Of a stretch of 64,000 nucleotides of DNA, positions 6,701 through 29,423 are shown piece after piece (within the stretch, counting starts at the first letter, position 1; every line of letters begins with the position of its first letter). The notes beneath the pieces were generated by a model, which worked only from the letters and a program-made list of their open reading frames with translations, was not told the origin of the DNA and searched no databases. The DNA lies in the NCBI RefSeq assembly GCF_028769735.1, contig NC_088172.1:71262631-71326630 (forward strand). Direction: 5' to 3'. Both the position numbers and the translations under genes were made by a program. This DNA is from Zonotrichia leucophrys gambelii. Taxonomy: Eukaryota > Chordata > Aves > Passeriformes > Passerellidae.

Positions 6701-9700
6701 GCTTTAGTGAACCTGGGGAAGCCAGTTTCATCTACCAGGTTAATCAATTAAGGTTCAAGGTATACTCACTTTGGGCTGACCTTTAACTACTGTAGTTGCA
6801 GCTTCTCCGGCCACAATTCCTACTCCTGCCCCTATCAAGGAGCACATCTATGAATGCAACAATGCCACCACTGGTGGGGATACCCTTGAAGGCATTGCAT
6901 TTAATGAACAGATAGAAACTGCTTGTGGAATTTCCTCACACAGCTCCACCAGATAATAATCCTACTTCAAATATTCCATCTCCAAATGCTTGGAAACACA
7001 CCTGCTTCTAGCTCTGGATAGAATCTGCTGTGGAATCATAGCAGATTTATGCCTCTCACATCCCCCTGTGAAGAATAAATGGGGAGCATGTAGTTCATAA
7101 CACCAGATGATCCAGACACAATGGAAAGATTCCCATCTTCAGGTTAAATGCTGAATTGCCATTGTCTTTCTGTGAATTAGCGTAAAGGGAAATTAAGAAG
7201 CACTAGATAGGAAAATCTAGCATTGCCCTTTGGGGACGTGTGTGCTACACTGTAAAATTCTTTTCAGTGGGCCTCAGCCAAAACTCCTGTCCACTGTAGT
7301 GATGTTAATTCAGAGTCTACTTGTTTATTGTCAGCATCAACATTAATACAAACAAATAAATACACAGATAAAAGAAGAGTCACCTGTCTCATCTTTACAT
7401 TACCATAGAAGACAAGGCTTAGCTTTGTGGACTGTAGATAACTGAAATCCATGCACATCATATTAAAATCACTTTCTTTTTTTTCCAAAGTGTTTTCCGT
7501 TTCAGAATATCATGTTAAATGTTTCTTGAAGTTTACACACCTCAAGGGAATCAGAGGTACCAAAGTTCATGGACTTTGCCAGGACAGCCCAGAGACTACA
7601 AGTGACCCTACACATTCCCCAAAGTACAATCCTCTGTGCTGCTTCCCAAGAAGGAGGAATCTGCTTACGTAGCCACCCTCAGGTTTATACAAGGACATCT
7701 CTGACTCTTGGCTGAATGCCTAGAATTGAACTTTTTCTTCTGCTCAGGAAGGTCCTGGGCAAAAGGTAGGGCAGGTTAGTGGTGGTACCAGCTCAGCATT
7801 AAGTGACCAAGACAGGAACATGTTATTTTCCTGAAAACCTGAAAAAGCTGCATGACTACTAGCAGATCTCCTCTTAGGTTAATATTCTTGTCCCCTATGG
7901 ATCCTGTACCAAAATAACAGGAGAGTCACAAGCGTTTTCAAGGAGTCCTAGTAGACCAGGGAGAGCATGGAAGGAAGTAAAAAAAAATAGTTTATTCTTG
8001 GCCTTAAAGAGTGATCTGGAAACCCACAAGATGCAACATCATCCCTTTCTGCAGGGACAGTGGTGTGGAAGTCCTGGATGTCCTGTCATACACAGCCCAT
8101 TGCAAGCAGCAATCATCTTGTCATTGATTCACTCAGCACAAGATCTAGGTCTGCCTAGCAAGCCTGATTTGCTTCCTAAGTACTATCAGTGTACTCACTT
8201 AATGGAATAAATTTTTGTGATGGAGAAGATGAGTACATGTGAGACAGAACTACAAAAGTATTTACAAATTCTATCAGAGTGATATTTTAATTTCAGATGA
8301 AATTTTGCTTAAAAGCCAGTGAGAGGATGTGGCACACAGAGAGGAGTCAGAAGAATATTATTTGTTCAGCCCTATGGTGAGAAGATCATGAACGATGAAG
8401 GAGCAGTGGACAGCATTTTTTGAAAGAAAACATTTAATATCTTCCACATCAGCACAGAATATGTGGAAGGCTACTATTTTCTACATAGAGATTTTAAAAA
8501 AGGGTATTTCAAAGCCCTCTGGGAGGAAAAGCAAGTACAGAAATCAAAGTTTAGGCTTTGTAAGTTCCTGGTTCTGTAGGATCACTCAGGCAATGAATGC
8601 CCAATCCAGGCAGCAGTGTGGGGTTTGACACAGTGCTTGGGTGTCACAGCAGGGGCTACGTCAGACTTGTTAAAGAAGGAAACAGATAGTTTGGGCATTC
8701 ATAAATCTTCACTACCAAATATATAACTTACCTAATTAGTTGCAATTGACTGCAGAAATACTCATTTAGAGGAAAATGAAGGAAAACTCATGACTAATGA
8801 AAACTGGCGGAACTTCCCTGAAGTCACATTAGTTACACTGAAATGATCTTCTATGTTGCTAATGATTCTGTTTGTGCAAAGGCAGTCTTTTCCCCCTTGC
8901 CTGCAGATGAAGTATTTTTCTCATTAAAATTCAGCTCACAGATGTCTACATGAGTTGCCTTTACCTCTTTGACTGCAATGTATACACTCTTTAGATTATA
9001 TGAAGGCAGATCAGAAAGAAATAGGGAAGAATCTGCAACTTTATATTTCAGTATCCAAATCTCAGGTAAGCAAGGAAACAAGAATGAGGACACATTCCAG
9101 TGTTCATAATTGAGATATAAATTTGTTGCAGAAAAAGTGAAGGAAAAAAATTAATGGATGATGGAGCAATGTGAATGAGGGGTTAGGCTGGAACAAGCCT
9201 GACAAATGCATACAGACCTTTGGCAGTAGTGACTGACTGTCCTCAGTAATCTCCCCAGCAATCTTCGCTGTACTGGGAAGGCAGTAAAACCTGTGAGGTT
9301 TAATTTTGGCCCTTCCCATTGCTTTTGTTACTGGATTTCGCATGGTTTGTAGACCTACCACTGGTCTCTCATCTCCTCAGAATGTGAGGGAGTACCACTC
9401 CACACAAAGTAATACTTTCTTGGTATTTATAAAACACACAAAATCACTAACAGAGTCAAGAGAGTCAATGGTCTAGCTACATAAACAATTGGTTGGTTTG
9501 ATGAGTTATATTAAATGGACAGAAATCAGTGTGCTCCAAATTTACTGTTTATAAGAACATAAATGCCTTCAGAGTTTTTGATTTATCAGACAATTTACAG
9601 AAGATTTTGTTAAAAGAGGAAAGTATTAATTCTTTGTTTCCTCCTCAGACAAGATTTAGCAATATTTTACAACCTATATATAGGAAAAGAGATAAATGTA

Positions 9701-24428: not shown

Positions 24429-25432
24429 TTTCAGTGGAGCTTCTGATGCAGAAATCACCCTTCCCCAGAATGTCCTGGTGAATAAAATGGTTCCAGCCTT
24501 TTCCTCAGTTTCTGCTCGCTGTATTCAAGGGAGCTCTCAATAAGACTAATGATCTAAAGAAGGAAATCTCAAGGGACAGGAGCTTTGCAGCCTTCTGACC
24601 TATTCTTCTTCACTAATCCTATCTATTAATACAGCCTGTGAACCTGTGGCCAGCAAAAGACAGAAGACTTCCTTGAATCCTCATTACTGCTATGTGCAAA
24701 AATCTCTAATGAAGAGTGGGTATCTGACAAAAGAGACAACTTCCTCTAAAATAAAGTGACACCACATAACCTACAGGCTCACAGGCACACCCACACCATA
24801 CTGATATGTTGCTTACATAACCGTACTTTCATCTTTTTTTCTTCATTGAAGATGAGTGGAATTTTAGTTCAAATGAAATTCAGGAAAAATCTCATACAAA
24901 TTAAAAAATGGCACAGTGAAAAAAAAAAAACCAAACAGGGAGGTGTCACCACCTTCAAATGTGACTTTAACATAGCAGAAAAAATAATTAACTTACTTTA
25001 CCAGCAGGATAGTTGTTAACTTAAAAAGAAGGGAAGGTAATTTCCAGTACAGGTTGAAAAAAATTGTAAGTACTTTGGATCATATTTTTTGAAAAAAATT
25101 GTAAGTACTTTGGATCATATTTTTAGACTGCTAAGGACCCTCCAAACTTGGAGTAAGCTCCATGTATGATGTGGGATTTTGCCCATACAGTTGAAAATGG
25201 AAATCTTGTTTTGTTGAAGTGCATGGGATTTGAGTCAGCTGAGAATATTTTTAGTCTTTTCTGAGGTATTATCAATCGTTGTTAAGAGAGGCCATATGTC
25301 AACTATCAGGTTGTAGTCATAACTAAAAAACATGAATCTAAATTAATTCATCTGGAGTAGCAAAGTGGTTAAGCATCCTTTCTGATTTTTTTCCCCTCAC
25401 CCCAGTCTTCACACACTGGGAGTGATTAATAC
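24429..25432. other. Region upstream of the OPN5L1 start codon
   Basis: This AT-rich sequence presumably includes 5' UTR or an upstream intron of the opsin gene. It contains a 35-base tandem duplication at 25054-25124. I saw no TATA box or other promoter element that I would defend. Confidence 0.5.
25054..25124. repeat. Tandem duplication, period 35
   Basis: Two copies, essentially identical, of a unit beginning ttgaaaaaaattgtaagtac lie head to tail. The near-identity suggests a recent slippage event or assembly duplication. It lies about 0.65 kb upstream of the OPN5L1 start codon. Confidence 0.9.
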
Positions 25433-25713
25433 CTTGATCGGCTTGCAGTTTTCTCCTTCTTCCTTCTGGTGGCACCCTCCAGTGAAGAACAGAGGCTTTG
25501 CAAACTGCTGTGGTTTGTTTGGTGGGTCTGCAGGTGTCCGTGCTTCCAAAGGAGAGAAAGGCTCCCTCTGCAGATTACAGGAGCCTCGTTTCATGTCTCT
25601 CACTGCTTTAGTGGTGACCAATTTAGTGGCTTCACAGAGATTATCCCCAAGTGCCTTCACTATCTTCACAAAGTGCTTTGAAAGGATTAGAGCAGCATAT
25701 GCTACGAGCAGCT
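25433..25713 (-). CDS. Unrecognised 93-codon exon-like open frame
   Basis: I do not recognise this sequence. On the minus strand a strong acceptor (pyrimidine-rich, ending gttatag) leads into a frame of 93 codons without a stop. The frame ends exactly in phase before gtatta, a usable donor after ATCAAG. The translation begins LLVAYAALILSKHFVKIVKA, then includes LCEATKLVTTKAVRDMKRGS, and is proline- and lysine-rich later. The frame would run on to a TGA about eight codons past the donor. It lies immediately downstream (minus sense) of the R2 Myb remnant. It could therefore be a host exon, a remnant of the R2 ORF between the Myb and reverse transcriptase regions, or chance. An overlapping plus-strand frame of 104 codons is probably its shadow. 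Confidence 0.3.
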
Positions 25714-26930
25714 CTATAACAGGACAAGAAAACTAAAATGCCATGGCAGTACAGACAAATAGTATAGACCCTGTTTGACACAGCTGTGACTGTGAGAAGG
25801 CACATAAAAAAATGGACTTGAATATTTCTGCTACCAGCAAACCTCCCCACCAGAAGAGCCTCTTCCTCCTCAGTCCACACCTTCTTGTGGGCTCCCCTTG
25901 CTGATGACTCCTTGGGATGGCAGGCAACAATCCATTCCATATTCCTCACAAGACAATGCATTAACCTCTTGTGTTGGCCCAGGCCAATCTTGGCAGAAAA
26001 ACCTCGCTGGCCCCCCTCACAGATCCACTCGCCCCTTGGAACCACACGCACCTGCCCTTTGCATTGTGAGACGTGACAAACAATACTGTGGTACGTGAGA
26101 TTTGATTTACCACATTTAGAGCACTTAAAGATGGGCCCTTTTCTGCCCATGGGTCCTCTTAAGATGGTGCATCAACCCCAGCATCCGAGTAAACGGGGTG
26201 GCAGAGCATGGACAAGATGGATTTTTGTCAGGGATGGACACAAGAAGAGTCCTGACCGGTGTTCTGCCCTTACTAGTCCTGGAAAGTGCCTCAGGTGTTT
26301 TAGGCTCTTCACTGCCTCTGGCTACACACTGAAATCATCCCGAGCCAGCCCAAACGGCAAGGTCTCATACGGCTCAGGGAGCTCTGCCACAGTCTCCAAA
26401 ACAACTCCCAGATGACTCCAACCACACGAGCAAACACAGAGTTTACAAACTCCAAATGTACCAGATTGAAACCCTCTTCCCTGGGCACAGAGGGGAAAGA
26501 TGAAACTTTGGCACCTCTGACCCTCAAATCCAAGGGGTCAGTCTGGGTGGCTGTCGATATAAATCACAAAGCCATTGATTGCACCATTGCAATAACTGGA
26601 AAAATACCAACAAGTCACAGTCCAAAGACAGTAAAAGTCAGCAGCTGTGTCCCTCCCAAACTGCCAGCTGTGTCCAACTCAAGCCCGTGGACAAGGCCCT
26701 GGGCAACAGCGAAATAACCGTGCCAATAATGTTGTTTCAGCAAGACCGTGAGACTACCGCTGGGCGGCGAGGCCAAGCCATAGGGAGGGCGATTTTCGCC
26801 TGTCACACTTGGACAAAAGCCGACTTCGTTACCGCAAAGGGATTCCAAAGGGGGCCGCGAGGAGGCGCGACTTAATATGCCCAGTCAGTAACTGTGCCTT
26901 CATCTCTTAAGAGTCGTAGCTACTCCCGCC
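25714..26930 (-). mobile_element. R2 non-LTR retrotransposon, decayed 5' / N-terminal part
   Basis: R2 elements encode one protein with N-terminal zinc fingers, a Myb motif, reverse transcriptase and a restriction-like endonuclease, and insert into 28S rRNA genes. Here, read on the minus strand and across shifted frames, are an LVHLEF segment (about 26455), an LPEPYE segment (about 26380) and IPDKNPSCPC leading into zinc finger 1 (26149-26214). A second CxxC-type finger beginning FKCSKCGK follows (26057-26129). Then comes a third finger with GLGQHKRLMH whose second cysteine is glycine (25956-26027), and a Myb start WTEEEEALL followed by FAGSRNI (about 25814-25877). The order and spacing match the zebra finch type of R2. 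Frameshifts and stops make it a pseudogene. No reverse transcriptase or endonuclease part is seen to the left. It carries a 28S-like leader at its 5' end. Confidence 0.88.
26904..26930 (-). other. 28S rRNA-like leader at the 5' edge of the R2 copy
   Basis: Read on the minus strand this is GGCGGGAGTAGCTACGACTC followed by TTAAG. The conserved 28S rRNA sequence directly upstream of the R2 insertion point is GGCGGGAGTAACTATGACTC, TC, TTAAG. There are two substitutions and one CT dinucleotide missing. Similarity stops abruptly at 26930: the next upstream bases do not follow 28S. Position, orientation and endpoint are those expected for the 5' end of an R2 RNA cut inside 28S by its ribozyme. Confidence 0.8.
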
Positions 26931-27375
26931 CTAGAAGGAACCTGAAGCTCCCCTTTCCTGCAGGCTGGGTCCGCACAAGGGACACAGACAAAGCGAACGC
27001 GCCTCGGGACACAGCGGCGCCTCCCTCCCTGCCCTGCTGCCACAGGCTCAGCTGTGCCGCCCGGGGCCCTGTGCCCTCAGGGACAGCCGGGCCCCGCACC
27101 CACCTGAGCTACGGCGGCTCCAGGCCCCGGCCAGGCCGGGAAAAGGGCCCACAGCTCTGGGGGCACAGCAGCGAGCCTGGCTGGGAGCAGCCACACAGCA
27201 TCTCAGTCCTGCCGGGATCTGTGCTCCACAGACCTCCGGAGAGAGCGCAGAGCCGGCCCCGCCCGGCCCCTGCCAGGCGCATCCCGCGGCCGCCCCGGAA
27301 TCAGCGCTCGGGGCTGCACCTGAGGGCGCGGGGCAGCTGCTGCTGCAGGGTGAACGAGCGAGAAACCCCCGGAAC
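26931..27375. promoter_or_regulatory. CpG-rich, GC-rich island
   Basis: The block is strikingly GC- and CpG-rich against the AT-rich surroundings. It has many CCCGG, GCGG and GGCCCCGC motifs and no TATA box that I can point to. A CpG-island promoter is the usual reading in a bird. Candidates are OPN5L1 (start codon 2.5 kb downstream, minus strand) or an unseen non-coding transcript. A plus-strand 197-codon frame through it (26894-27487) is proline- and arginine-rich and looks like a by-product of base composition. Confidence 0.5.
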
Positions 27376-29423
27376 CACTGATGTCTCAGGACACCTGACT
27401 AAAGGCAGTGATGCAATGACCGGATTAGGACACAAAAGGGCGATACAGCCCATTTTACAAAAGTACCAAACCAACCAGTGTCTCTGAGGCAGCAGGCAAA
27501 GCCAATTTAGAGCAGATATAAGCCAGCAGTACCTTCTCCTTGGGCTGCTAAAATGTGCAACAGCCTTTGAATCCTCCCTATTTGCCTAAGTGCTTTCAAA
27601 GTGCCAGATATACCGGCACAAAAAGGCAAATACCACAGCAGCACAGACTGGCCTGACATACTAGTCCGGTTACGTTGCAATCCACTATACTGTTTCCAAT
27701 ACAGAAAAATCCTAAAAATTAAAATTTGTGTGTGACAGAAAACATATGATGAATGTTCCCGAGAAGCACCTGTTTTCCCTGAGGAGCACTGCCCTGAGAG
27801 ATTTGGGCAGTCGCCAAAGGAGTGATTATGTCAGAAAGCTGGTGTAAATTCTCACAGACTATTTTTTCACAATACCTGTTCTACATGGGTTAAAGAAAAG
27901 GACCATAGAAGGAGGAGACAAAAGGAAAACTTCATAAGGATGGGTTAAAATAACCATAAGCAGATAGAAAATTGGTTGTGTGGAATGAAAATACACTTTT
28001 GCCTCTGTAAGGCATAAAATTTTCTGAAATTTTACAGAAATATAATTGAGGGATTTCAAGGCAAATCCAATGGTACATTAGTTGGAACATGTCTATGCAG
28101 ATTCTTTTGGATAAATCATTTACATTTTTACTTCACATTTTTAATTAGAATATTCACTACAAAAGGAAAAGACTGTGACTATCCAACAAGACATCACTTA
28201 GTCTTGCAATGAATAGTCTCACAATGATGAGTTATGCCTATGGATTTCATCAAGGTAGCCAAAAACCACATTTTATATGAGTGACAGAAGATCTTTCCAA
28301 ATTCAGATCATGTAGGTTTTCCCTGGTTCCAATAAAATACAGCTGTTGAACGTATTTGCACAGATTTTTTTCTAACACACATTAAATGAAAAGGAAAAAA
28401 ATCTTGAGATCAGGTAAGTAATGCTTAAAACTTGTTGATGGACAAATGGGAATGACTGTGCCTGCTGCAAAGCGATTTGGAATTGCTTACCTGTAAGAAC
28501 CAAATCTGAATCTGCTCTTTTGTTGCCAATGTCCAATTTTGTAGAACAAAACCACATCTGAAATATTTAAACTGAAGAATGATCATAATGTGAAACATGC
28601 TTGACCACTTACATTTCAAAACATGCCAGTTTAATCCTGGATGTCAGCTCTTGCTGTGACATTTTAGCATGAAAACAATTGCACTCTATGCATTCTCTAG
28701 TTAAATGTCTAAACCACTTTTTTTTTTTTTTTGGCCTTCGTTGGGTTATTTGCCAAACTTAAGAAAATGGTTACATCACATAATGAATACATTGTAAAAT
28801 CCATACTTCTGCCATGATTTCTATGGACTCTAGCCTATTAAGTTTCATACATTATTCTTGTTCTCATCAATCCTGAATGCTAATTTTTCTCTGGAGGGTT
28901 GTGTTCTATAGCTTGTGACAGATATTGAAAACTACCTGAGAGAAAAAAATGCTTGGTCAGTGCTTATTACTGCAATATACAGTTTGAAATGAACTATTTC
29001 TCAAGGAACACTCTTTAGATTGATGCTAATACAAAGACAGGCTACCTTGCTCCTTAAGATATATGCTACTTTCATGTTGAAATATTGAAGAGAATGAAAA
29101 ATACTTTATGCAAATTAGGTGGCTGAAGCTTTGTATTATTTAAACTCTCTCCTCTGAGCTGAACTTACACTAAGTAGGTTAGGTGATGGTAAAGGAAATT
29201 AAAACTTTTTTGGGCAGATGAATCAGTTTGTGAGAGGTTTCAAGTGAAGTGTGGAAGTCCTGCTTCTGAGGCAACAGTTTCCTAATAAGAGATGGGGCCA
29301 CTCTTGGCAACCGCTGATGAGTGGCTAAAAGGCAGGAGCCTCTCTGTGGCACAAAGAAATACAAGATTTGATCTCTCTTATTTCTAATAAGTTGCACTGA
29401 TTTTTTTTTTTATTAAAAGAATG

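What the first reader, a model, noticed from the sequence alone, without database searches (positions are those of the whole stretch)
25714..26930. R2 retrotransposon remnant outside ribosomal DNA, with its 28S leader
R2 elements are known for strict insertion into 28S rRNA genes. Here an R2 N-terminal coding region (zinc fingers, Myb) lies in ordinary intergenic DNA next to an opsin gene. Its 5' edge carries about 28 bases of 28S-like sequence, ending abruptly at 26930. R2 RNA is cut out of the 28S co-transcript by a self-cleaving HDV-like ribozyme, and in some lineages the cut lies within 28S upstream of the junction. A copy starting with a short 28S leader is what a ribozyme-processed R2 RNA inserted off target would leave. 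The order of motifs and the 28S leader are seen in the sequence; the off-target mechanism is inference.
Basis: partly seen in the sequence, partly recalled or inferred. Interest (0 to 1): 0.88.

Follow-up and report, generated by a model that had tools for sequence, protein, structure and literature searches.

The report
Stray ribosomal jumping gene, 5' part
A decayed piece of an R2 jumping gene, which normally lives only inside ribosomal RNA genes, sits in ordinary chromosome DNA and still begins at the exact point where R2 RNA cuts itself free from ribosomal RNA; stray bird R2 copies were known, and the exact edge makes this one a fossil of that RNA step.

Summary
Confirmed and sharpened. 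Minus strand 26930-25822 (1,109 nt) is a decayed A-clade R2 copy: 25 nt of 28S leader, ribozyme region, 5' UTR, zinc fingers, start of Myb (E about 1e-36 to zebra finch R2). The same genome holds a canonical 28S|R2 junction (C1428) and a divergent R2 family ("R2-B") whose C19 copy is 80% identical to the window copy over 1.1 kb. 28S identity starts exactly at position -28; the 30 nt before it match 28S at 7 of 30. Position -28 is the cut site assigned to zebra finch R2 and seen in vitro for sparrow R2. One other R2-B locus without 28S directly upstream (C331/C516, duplicated) begins within 1 nt of -28. The window copy lacks the R2 3' end. Two other copies deep in chromosomes (C3, C5) keep an R2-B-like 3' end with no 28S after it, so off-target insertion did occur here; the window copy's 3' part was either lost or never copied. 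Ectopic, truncated avian R2 with weakly 28S-like 5' flanks was reported in 2016. New member of a known kind, with an unusually exact 5' edge.

The parts
26931..27400 (.). 5' flank: GC-rich (about 71%), not 28S; only the window itself matched it in the genome search, which skips simple repeats and very common words
26906..26930 (-). 28S leader, first base = 28S position -28; 2 substitutions and one 2-nt deletion against the canonical leader
26817..26905 (-). R2 5' end with decayed HDV-like ribozyme, pairing inferred by hand: P2 (26873-26868 with 26822-26817), P3 GCC/GGC (26866-26864 with 26856-26854), L3 TCCTCGC, P1' with one mismatch to the leader
26215..26816 (-). R2 5' untranslated region, alignable with the C19, C331 and C516 R2-B copies
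26140..26214 (-). zinc finger 3, in another frame than the rest (frameshift)
25822..26147 (-). zinc fingers 2 and 1 and the start of Myb; zinc finger 1 has lost a cysteine; similarity to the closest R2-B copies ends at 25822
25409..25821 (.). 3' flank: no established R2 similarity; contains an open frame at 25732-25412 (minus) of unknown meaning

Best explanation
A copy of a second R2 family (here R2-B) was written into ordinary chromosome DNA from an R2 RNA whose 5' end had been made by ribozyme cleavage at 28S position -28. Reverse transcription ran to that RNA end, and the cDNA end was joined to unrelated DNA, so the leader stayed as a scar instead of annealing to 28S. Shown: R2 identity, the -28 edge, the non-28S flank, the truncation. 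Inferred: the RNA route and the joining. For the missing 3' part I now slightly favour ordinary off-target insertion followed by loss of the 3' part over copying that began inside the RNA (about 55 to 45). The copy is dead; its divergence is about 0.08-0.12 substitutions per site.
For: 28S identity begins exactly at -28, a cut site of many R2s, assigned to zebra finch R2 too (passages) and matched by precise in vitro release for the sparrow ribozyme. The C331/C516 R2-B locus has a leader from -27, with no 28S found in the 3.8 kb (C331) and 7.3 kb (C516) held upstream. One R2-B piece (C516, about 9.3 kb) has P1' CCCGCC, which pairs fully with GGCGGG of the leader. Relatives continue into Myb, linker and reverse transcriptase where the window copy stops. 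Off-target insertion happens: C5 holds a 5'-truncated copy and C3 an internally deleted one, each with an R2-B-like 3' end followed by non-28S DNA; avian R2 proteins insert off target in human cells at roughly 0.1-1% of 3' junctions (PMC11371274 passages).
Against: One locus cannot separate RNA-mediated insertion from relocation of a DNA piece that broke at -28 by chance. No target-site duplication: the longest word shared near the two edges is 6 nt and not at the 3' edge (one search had left out 25801-25821). No R2 3' end in the window. The empty site in a relative was not available. C331 and C516 are one duplicated locus, and C331 carries 28S pieces elsewhere (positions 1-146 and about 56.2-56.5 kb), so it may come from decayed rDNA; a later insertion at its leader is not excluded. 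The window copy's own P1 has a mismatch, perhaps later decay.
Confidence: 0.72

Rival explanations
1. A variant of the RNA route: copying began inside the R2 RNA (or a partial cDNA was captured in repair) and ran to the -28 end, so the 3' part was never copied.
For: The copy is 5'-complete and 3'-truncated. C16 holds a 292-bp internal piece, 96% identical to the R2 of C1428, with neither R2 end found in 1.5 kb on each side: fragment insertion does occur here. Fusions of internal template to genomic sites are described as rare in human cells.
Against: C3 and C5 keep 3' ends, so the usual route also left copies; C3 shows that old copies lose internal stretches.
Confidence: 0.32
2. A piece of rDNA with an R2 copy moved as DNA, and its breakpoint fell at -28 by chance.
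For: R2 copies with decayed 28S upstream lie on C98, C172, C675, C1137, the far end of C331, and C19.
Against: Those copies show 28S well beyond -28; the window has none, and the other 5' edge without 28S directly upstream lies within 1 nt of -28.
Confidence: 0.18
3. Misassembly or contamination joining rDNA reads to a chromosome.
For: R2 and rDNA assemble badly; the R2 in the 10-kb contig C1428 has several frame breaks.
Against: The window copy differs by K2P 0.19 from its closest relative found and 0.69 from the R2 of C1428; its leader is mutated; it lies at about C4:71.29 Mb.
Confidence: 0.02
4. A host gene has taken over the R2 zinc-finger/Myb part.
For: The frame is open from 26171 to 25644 on the minus strand.
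Against: Frameshift between zinc fingers 3 and 2, a lost zinc ligand in finger 1, Myb cut off.
Confidence: 0.02

Closest known systems
Avian R2 (A clade): R2Tg of zebra finch, R2 of white-throated sparrow
   Same: zinc fingers, Myb, 5' ribozyme core, -28 leader
   Different: lies outside 28S; cut off after 1.1 kb; 53% protein identity over the best stretch
Budgerigar R2-1_MUn and R2-2_MUn (PMC5035012, section 11 read)
   Same: decayed avian copies whose 5' edge is weakly 28S-like; R2-1_MUn corresponds to the 5' 730 bp only
   Different: the section gives no exact edge (Fig. 3 with the junctions is not held) and no chromosome position; R2-2_MUn keeps a 3' stretch
R2 copies outside 28S in Drosophila (PMC2718515, passages)
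   Same: often incomplete R2 copies outside 28S
   Different: 1-2% diverged there; the Drosophila ribozyme cuts at the element's own 5' end
Off-target insertions of engineered avian R2 in human cells (PMC11371274 and PMC12222951, passages; section 11 of the latter read)
   Same: avian R2 RNA written outside the 28S site
   Different: those candidates are defined by the template 3' end, which this copy lacks

Membership tests
R2 non-LTR retrotransposon, A clade | R2 protein similarity with three N-terminal zinc fingers and Myb | tested here: met
   Myb only in part, finger 3 out of frame
R2 non-LTR retrotransposon, A clade | R2-type reverse transcriptase and endonuclease | tested here: not met
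   not found in the window; present in R2-B relatives: a fragment of a member, not a whole element
R2 non-LTR retrotransposon, A clade | insertion at the 28S R2 site | tested here: not met
   no 28S beyond the leader; C1428 is in 28S and C19 in decayed 28S
R2 HDV-like ribozyme | P1, P2, P3 and L3 core in the order of HDV | tested here: inconclusive
   P2 6 pairs, P3 3 pairs, L3 kept, P1 5 of 6 pairs, P4 not tested; no HDV match in Rfam even at E 10; plain folding no better than shuffles (165 of 200 at least as stable)
R2 HDV-like ribozyme | self-cleavage at -28 | not testable with these tools
   in vitro result for the sparrow ribozyme (PMC11331408, section 5 read)
Off-target target-primed insertion | R2 3' end present at the insertion | tested here: not met
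   no 3' end in the window (best chance-level match E 0.41); later loss cannot be excluded

The most novel reading that the evidence does not exclude
Bird R2 has a second, off-target route in which copying starts inside the ribozyme-processed RNA and runs to its -28 end, leaving 5'-complete, 3'-truncated copies, the mirror image of normal retrotransposon truncation.
Probability: 0.25. Interest if true: 0.6.

Novelty: new member of a known kind. Interest (0 to 1): 0.45.

Why it matters
R2 is being built into a gene-writing tool, and how often its RNA lands off target over evolution, and in what form, is open. A dated ectopic copy that starts at the ribozyme cut site is natural evidence that processed R2 RNA is the template in this lineage, and together with the C3, C5 and C16 copies it makes one genome a small test set for off-target R2 insertion.

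Tried and rejected
Rfam on the window (gathering) and on 26500-27000 (E up to 10): no ribozyme or rRNA. Free-energy folding of 156 nt: 165 of 200 shuffles at least as stable; it cannot see a pseudoknot. The 25732-25412 frame as R2 linker: rejected against R2Tg (208 and 247 of 500 shuffles score as high) and the genome's own R2 (431 of 500); as host exon: nothing significant in Pfam or PDB. DNA similarity of 25821-25400 to the R2-B continuation: shuffles scoring as high were L041 118, L043 19, L042 3, L047 16 of 200; the L042 value is low but aligns a stretch far from the edge, and four comparisons were made, so it stays inconclusive. Covariation: 7 substitutions in the P2/P3 arms keep all 9 pairs; chance 162, 1,250 or 14,322 of 200,000 at 33%, 67% or 100% transitions; all 7 are transitions, so the fair figure is about 7% and the result is only supportive. 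A global alignment of the 5' UTRs with the genome's own R2 failed. Dropped on checking: that the interior pieces on C3, C5 and C16 all lack the R2 3' end. A search with the R2-B 3' part found it on C3 and C5; only C16 stays without. I therefore turned the odds for the missing 3' part from internal start (60 to 40) to later loss (55 to 45) and lowered the novel case from 0.3 to 0.25. Orthologues in other birds: not available with these tools.

Full report
WHAT IS THERE. On the minus strand, window 26930-25822 is a decayed R2 copy. Translated pieces 26147-25782 (53% identity, 126 columns) and 26214-26140 (44%, 25 columns, another frame) match zebra finch R2 at E about 1e-36; the PDB search gives 4.3e-37 to 9nl3, 6.1e-37 to R2Tg 9dou and 1.2e-27 to 9nl2. 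Zinc finger 3 is out of frame and reads CPCS where R2Tg reads CPCC; zinc finger 1 lacks a cysteine. Variants of the finger 3 motif are described in birds (PMC13188248, passages); whether CPCS works is not known.

THE 5' EDGE. Base 26930 corresponds to 28S position -28. The leader agrees with 28S except for two substitutions and one 2-nt deletion. Before it, 7 of 30 bases agree with the genome's own 28S and 16 of 60 in an ungapped count, that is, chance. In simulation 1 of 30 window-like and 0 of 30 locally GC-matched 128-kb sequences reach the leader's score. What fixes it is position: the ribozyme core begins 66 nt from the edge; in zebra finch R2 it begins at nucleotide 37, hence 65 nt from -28 (PMC5035012 section 16). 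Eickbush et al. 2013 (PMC3774820; passages, sections 12 and 18) call -28 the most frequent R2 cut site and list zebra finch under it; Palm et al. 2024 (PMC11331408, section 5) report precise in vitro release for the sparrow ribozyme, predicted to cut at -28.

THE SAME GENOME. The own-genome search answered three times. The exact 28-nt leader was found once, in C1428, where 28S continues upstream (LSU match) and an R2 follows that is 82% identical to zebra finch R2 over 818 residues. With that R2 as query 39 places were listed, a lower bound. On contigs of chromosome size they are C3 (1), C5 (1), C16 (1), C4 (1, the window) and C19 (6, at 69-117 kb from one end). With the window stretch as query 17 places were listed, the window included; the best other is C19:116259-117383, 80% identical over window 26912-25822. 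C331 and C516 follow at 68-69%. K2P: window-C19 0.19, window-C516 0.39, window-own R2 0.69. The window copy thus belongs to a second R2 family, here R2-B. Kojima et al. list two R2 families for some birds, while seeing one avian lineage.

5' JUNCTIONS COMPARED. Copies with decayed 28S upstream of the leader: L009/L028 (C98), L010/L026 (C172), L016/L030 (C1137), L029 (C675), L032 (C331 far end). C19's R2-B copy lies in decayed 28S with a palindrome in place of most of the leader. C331:16191 and C516:28603, one duplicated locus (96% over 6 kb), have the leader from -27; no 28S was found in the 3.8 and 7.3 kb held upstream, and the C516 flank carries a C2H2 zinc-finger frame. C331 does carry 28S pieces elsewhere. 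So both R2-B 5' edges found without 28S directly upstream lie at -28 or one base off. That is two, not a statistic; a wider search for such edges did not complete.

3' EDGE. C19 and both C516 copies match the window to 25822, C331 to 25849, and go on into Myb, linker and reverse transcriptase. Looser alignments extend to 25807 (own R2) and 25782 (protein), so the edge is known to about 40 nt. R2-B pieces from reverse transcriptase to 3' end have no match in the window at E 0.01, and the 3' part alone has best E 0.41; no 28S downstream sequence. No target duplication: 6-nt word at best, not at the 3' edge.

OTHER COPIES INSIDE CHROMOSOMES. C5:28.73 Mb is a 5'-truncated copy that runs to the R2-B-like 3' end, followed by non-28S DNA. 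C3:90.46 Mb has a reverse-transcriptase piece and, after a gap, an R2-B-like 3' end, again without 28S. C16:1.83 Mb is a 292-bp internal piece, 96% identical to the R2 of C1428, with no R2 end found. So of the four interior copies two have a 3' end, one (the window) the 5' end, one neither. The C3 and C5 copies look like off-target insertions; the C16 piece looks like fragment capture. Both routes are therefore open for the window copy.

RIBOZYME. Relic and own R2 align in the 5' 160 nt; P2 keeps 6 pairs and P3 3 pairs through 7 substitutions, P1 keeps 5 of 6, two of them G-U, with one C-C mismatch. In the most lenient model the chance of keeping the nine pairs is about 7%: support, not proof. 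The pairing is inferred by hand; Rfam and plain folding do not see it.

AGE. Leader divergence 2 of 25 (95% interval 1-26%); terminal branch 0.12 against 0.07 for the C19 copy. With a bird neutral rate near 2e-9 per site per year (recalled, no call) this is tens of millions of years.

CONTEXT. Pfam confirms rhodopsin-family exon pieces (about 15.7, 2.2 and 0.75 kb, minus strand) and a FEZ-like gene (pieces at about 61.5, 58.8 and 55.8 kb, minus strand). That the receptor is an opsin and that the host is a bird, perhaps a songbird, are my readings from these and from the R2 similarity.

PRIOR WORK. Kojima et al. [quoted passage not shown] A 2009 study reports R2 copies not in 28S in five Drosophila species (PMC2718515, passages). 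In the eight paper searches made (listings, with passages or sections of seven papers opened) I saw no report of an ectopic avian R2 edge placed at -28; most subscription papers and the figures, including Kojima's Fig. 3 of junctions, are not held.

Noticed in passing
L033 (C516), about 9373-9586: An R2-B 3' end (..TTTATTAA) runs directly into an R2-B 5' end with no 28S leader between: a head-to-tail junction.
   Followed up: partly
L041 (C19), just before the R2-B 5' end: A long palindrome (TTACTCTCTTAAAAGTGGGAGAGTCATTG and its complement) stands in place of most of the 28S leader.
   Followed up: no
L031 (C5) 1091-1845 and L022 (C3) 1501-2313: Two old R2 copies deep in chromosomes with R2-B-like 3' ends not followed by 28S; C5 is 5'-truncated, C3 internally deleted.
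   Followed up: partly
L015 (C16:1834481-1834772): A 292-bp internal R2 piece, 96% identical to the R2 of C1428, no R2 end found and longest word shared across its edges 5 nt: a recent fragment insertion.
   Followed up: partly
L002 (C1428), after the R2 ORF: The R2 3' UTR appears to hold tandem repeats of roughly 200 bp, seen by eye.
   Followed up: no
window 25054-25124: A perfect 35-bp tandem duplication.
   Followed up: no
window 25412-25732, minus strand: An open frame of 107 codons with an acceptor-like start and a donor-like end by eye; no significant Pfam or PDB match for its main part.
   Followed up: partly
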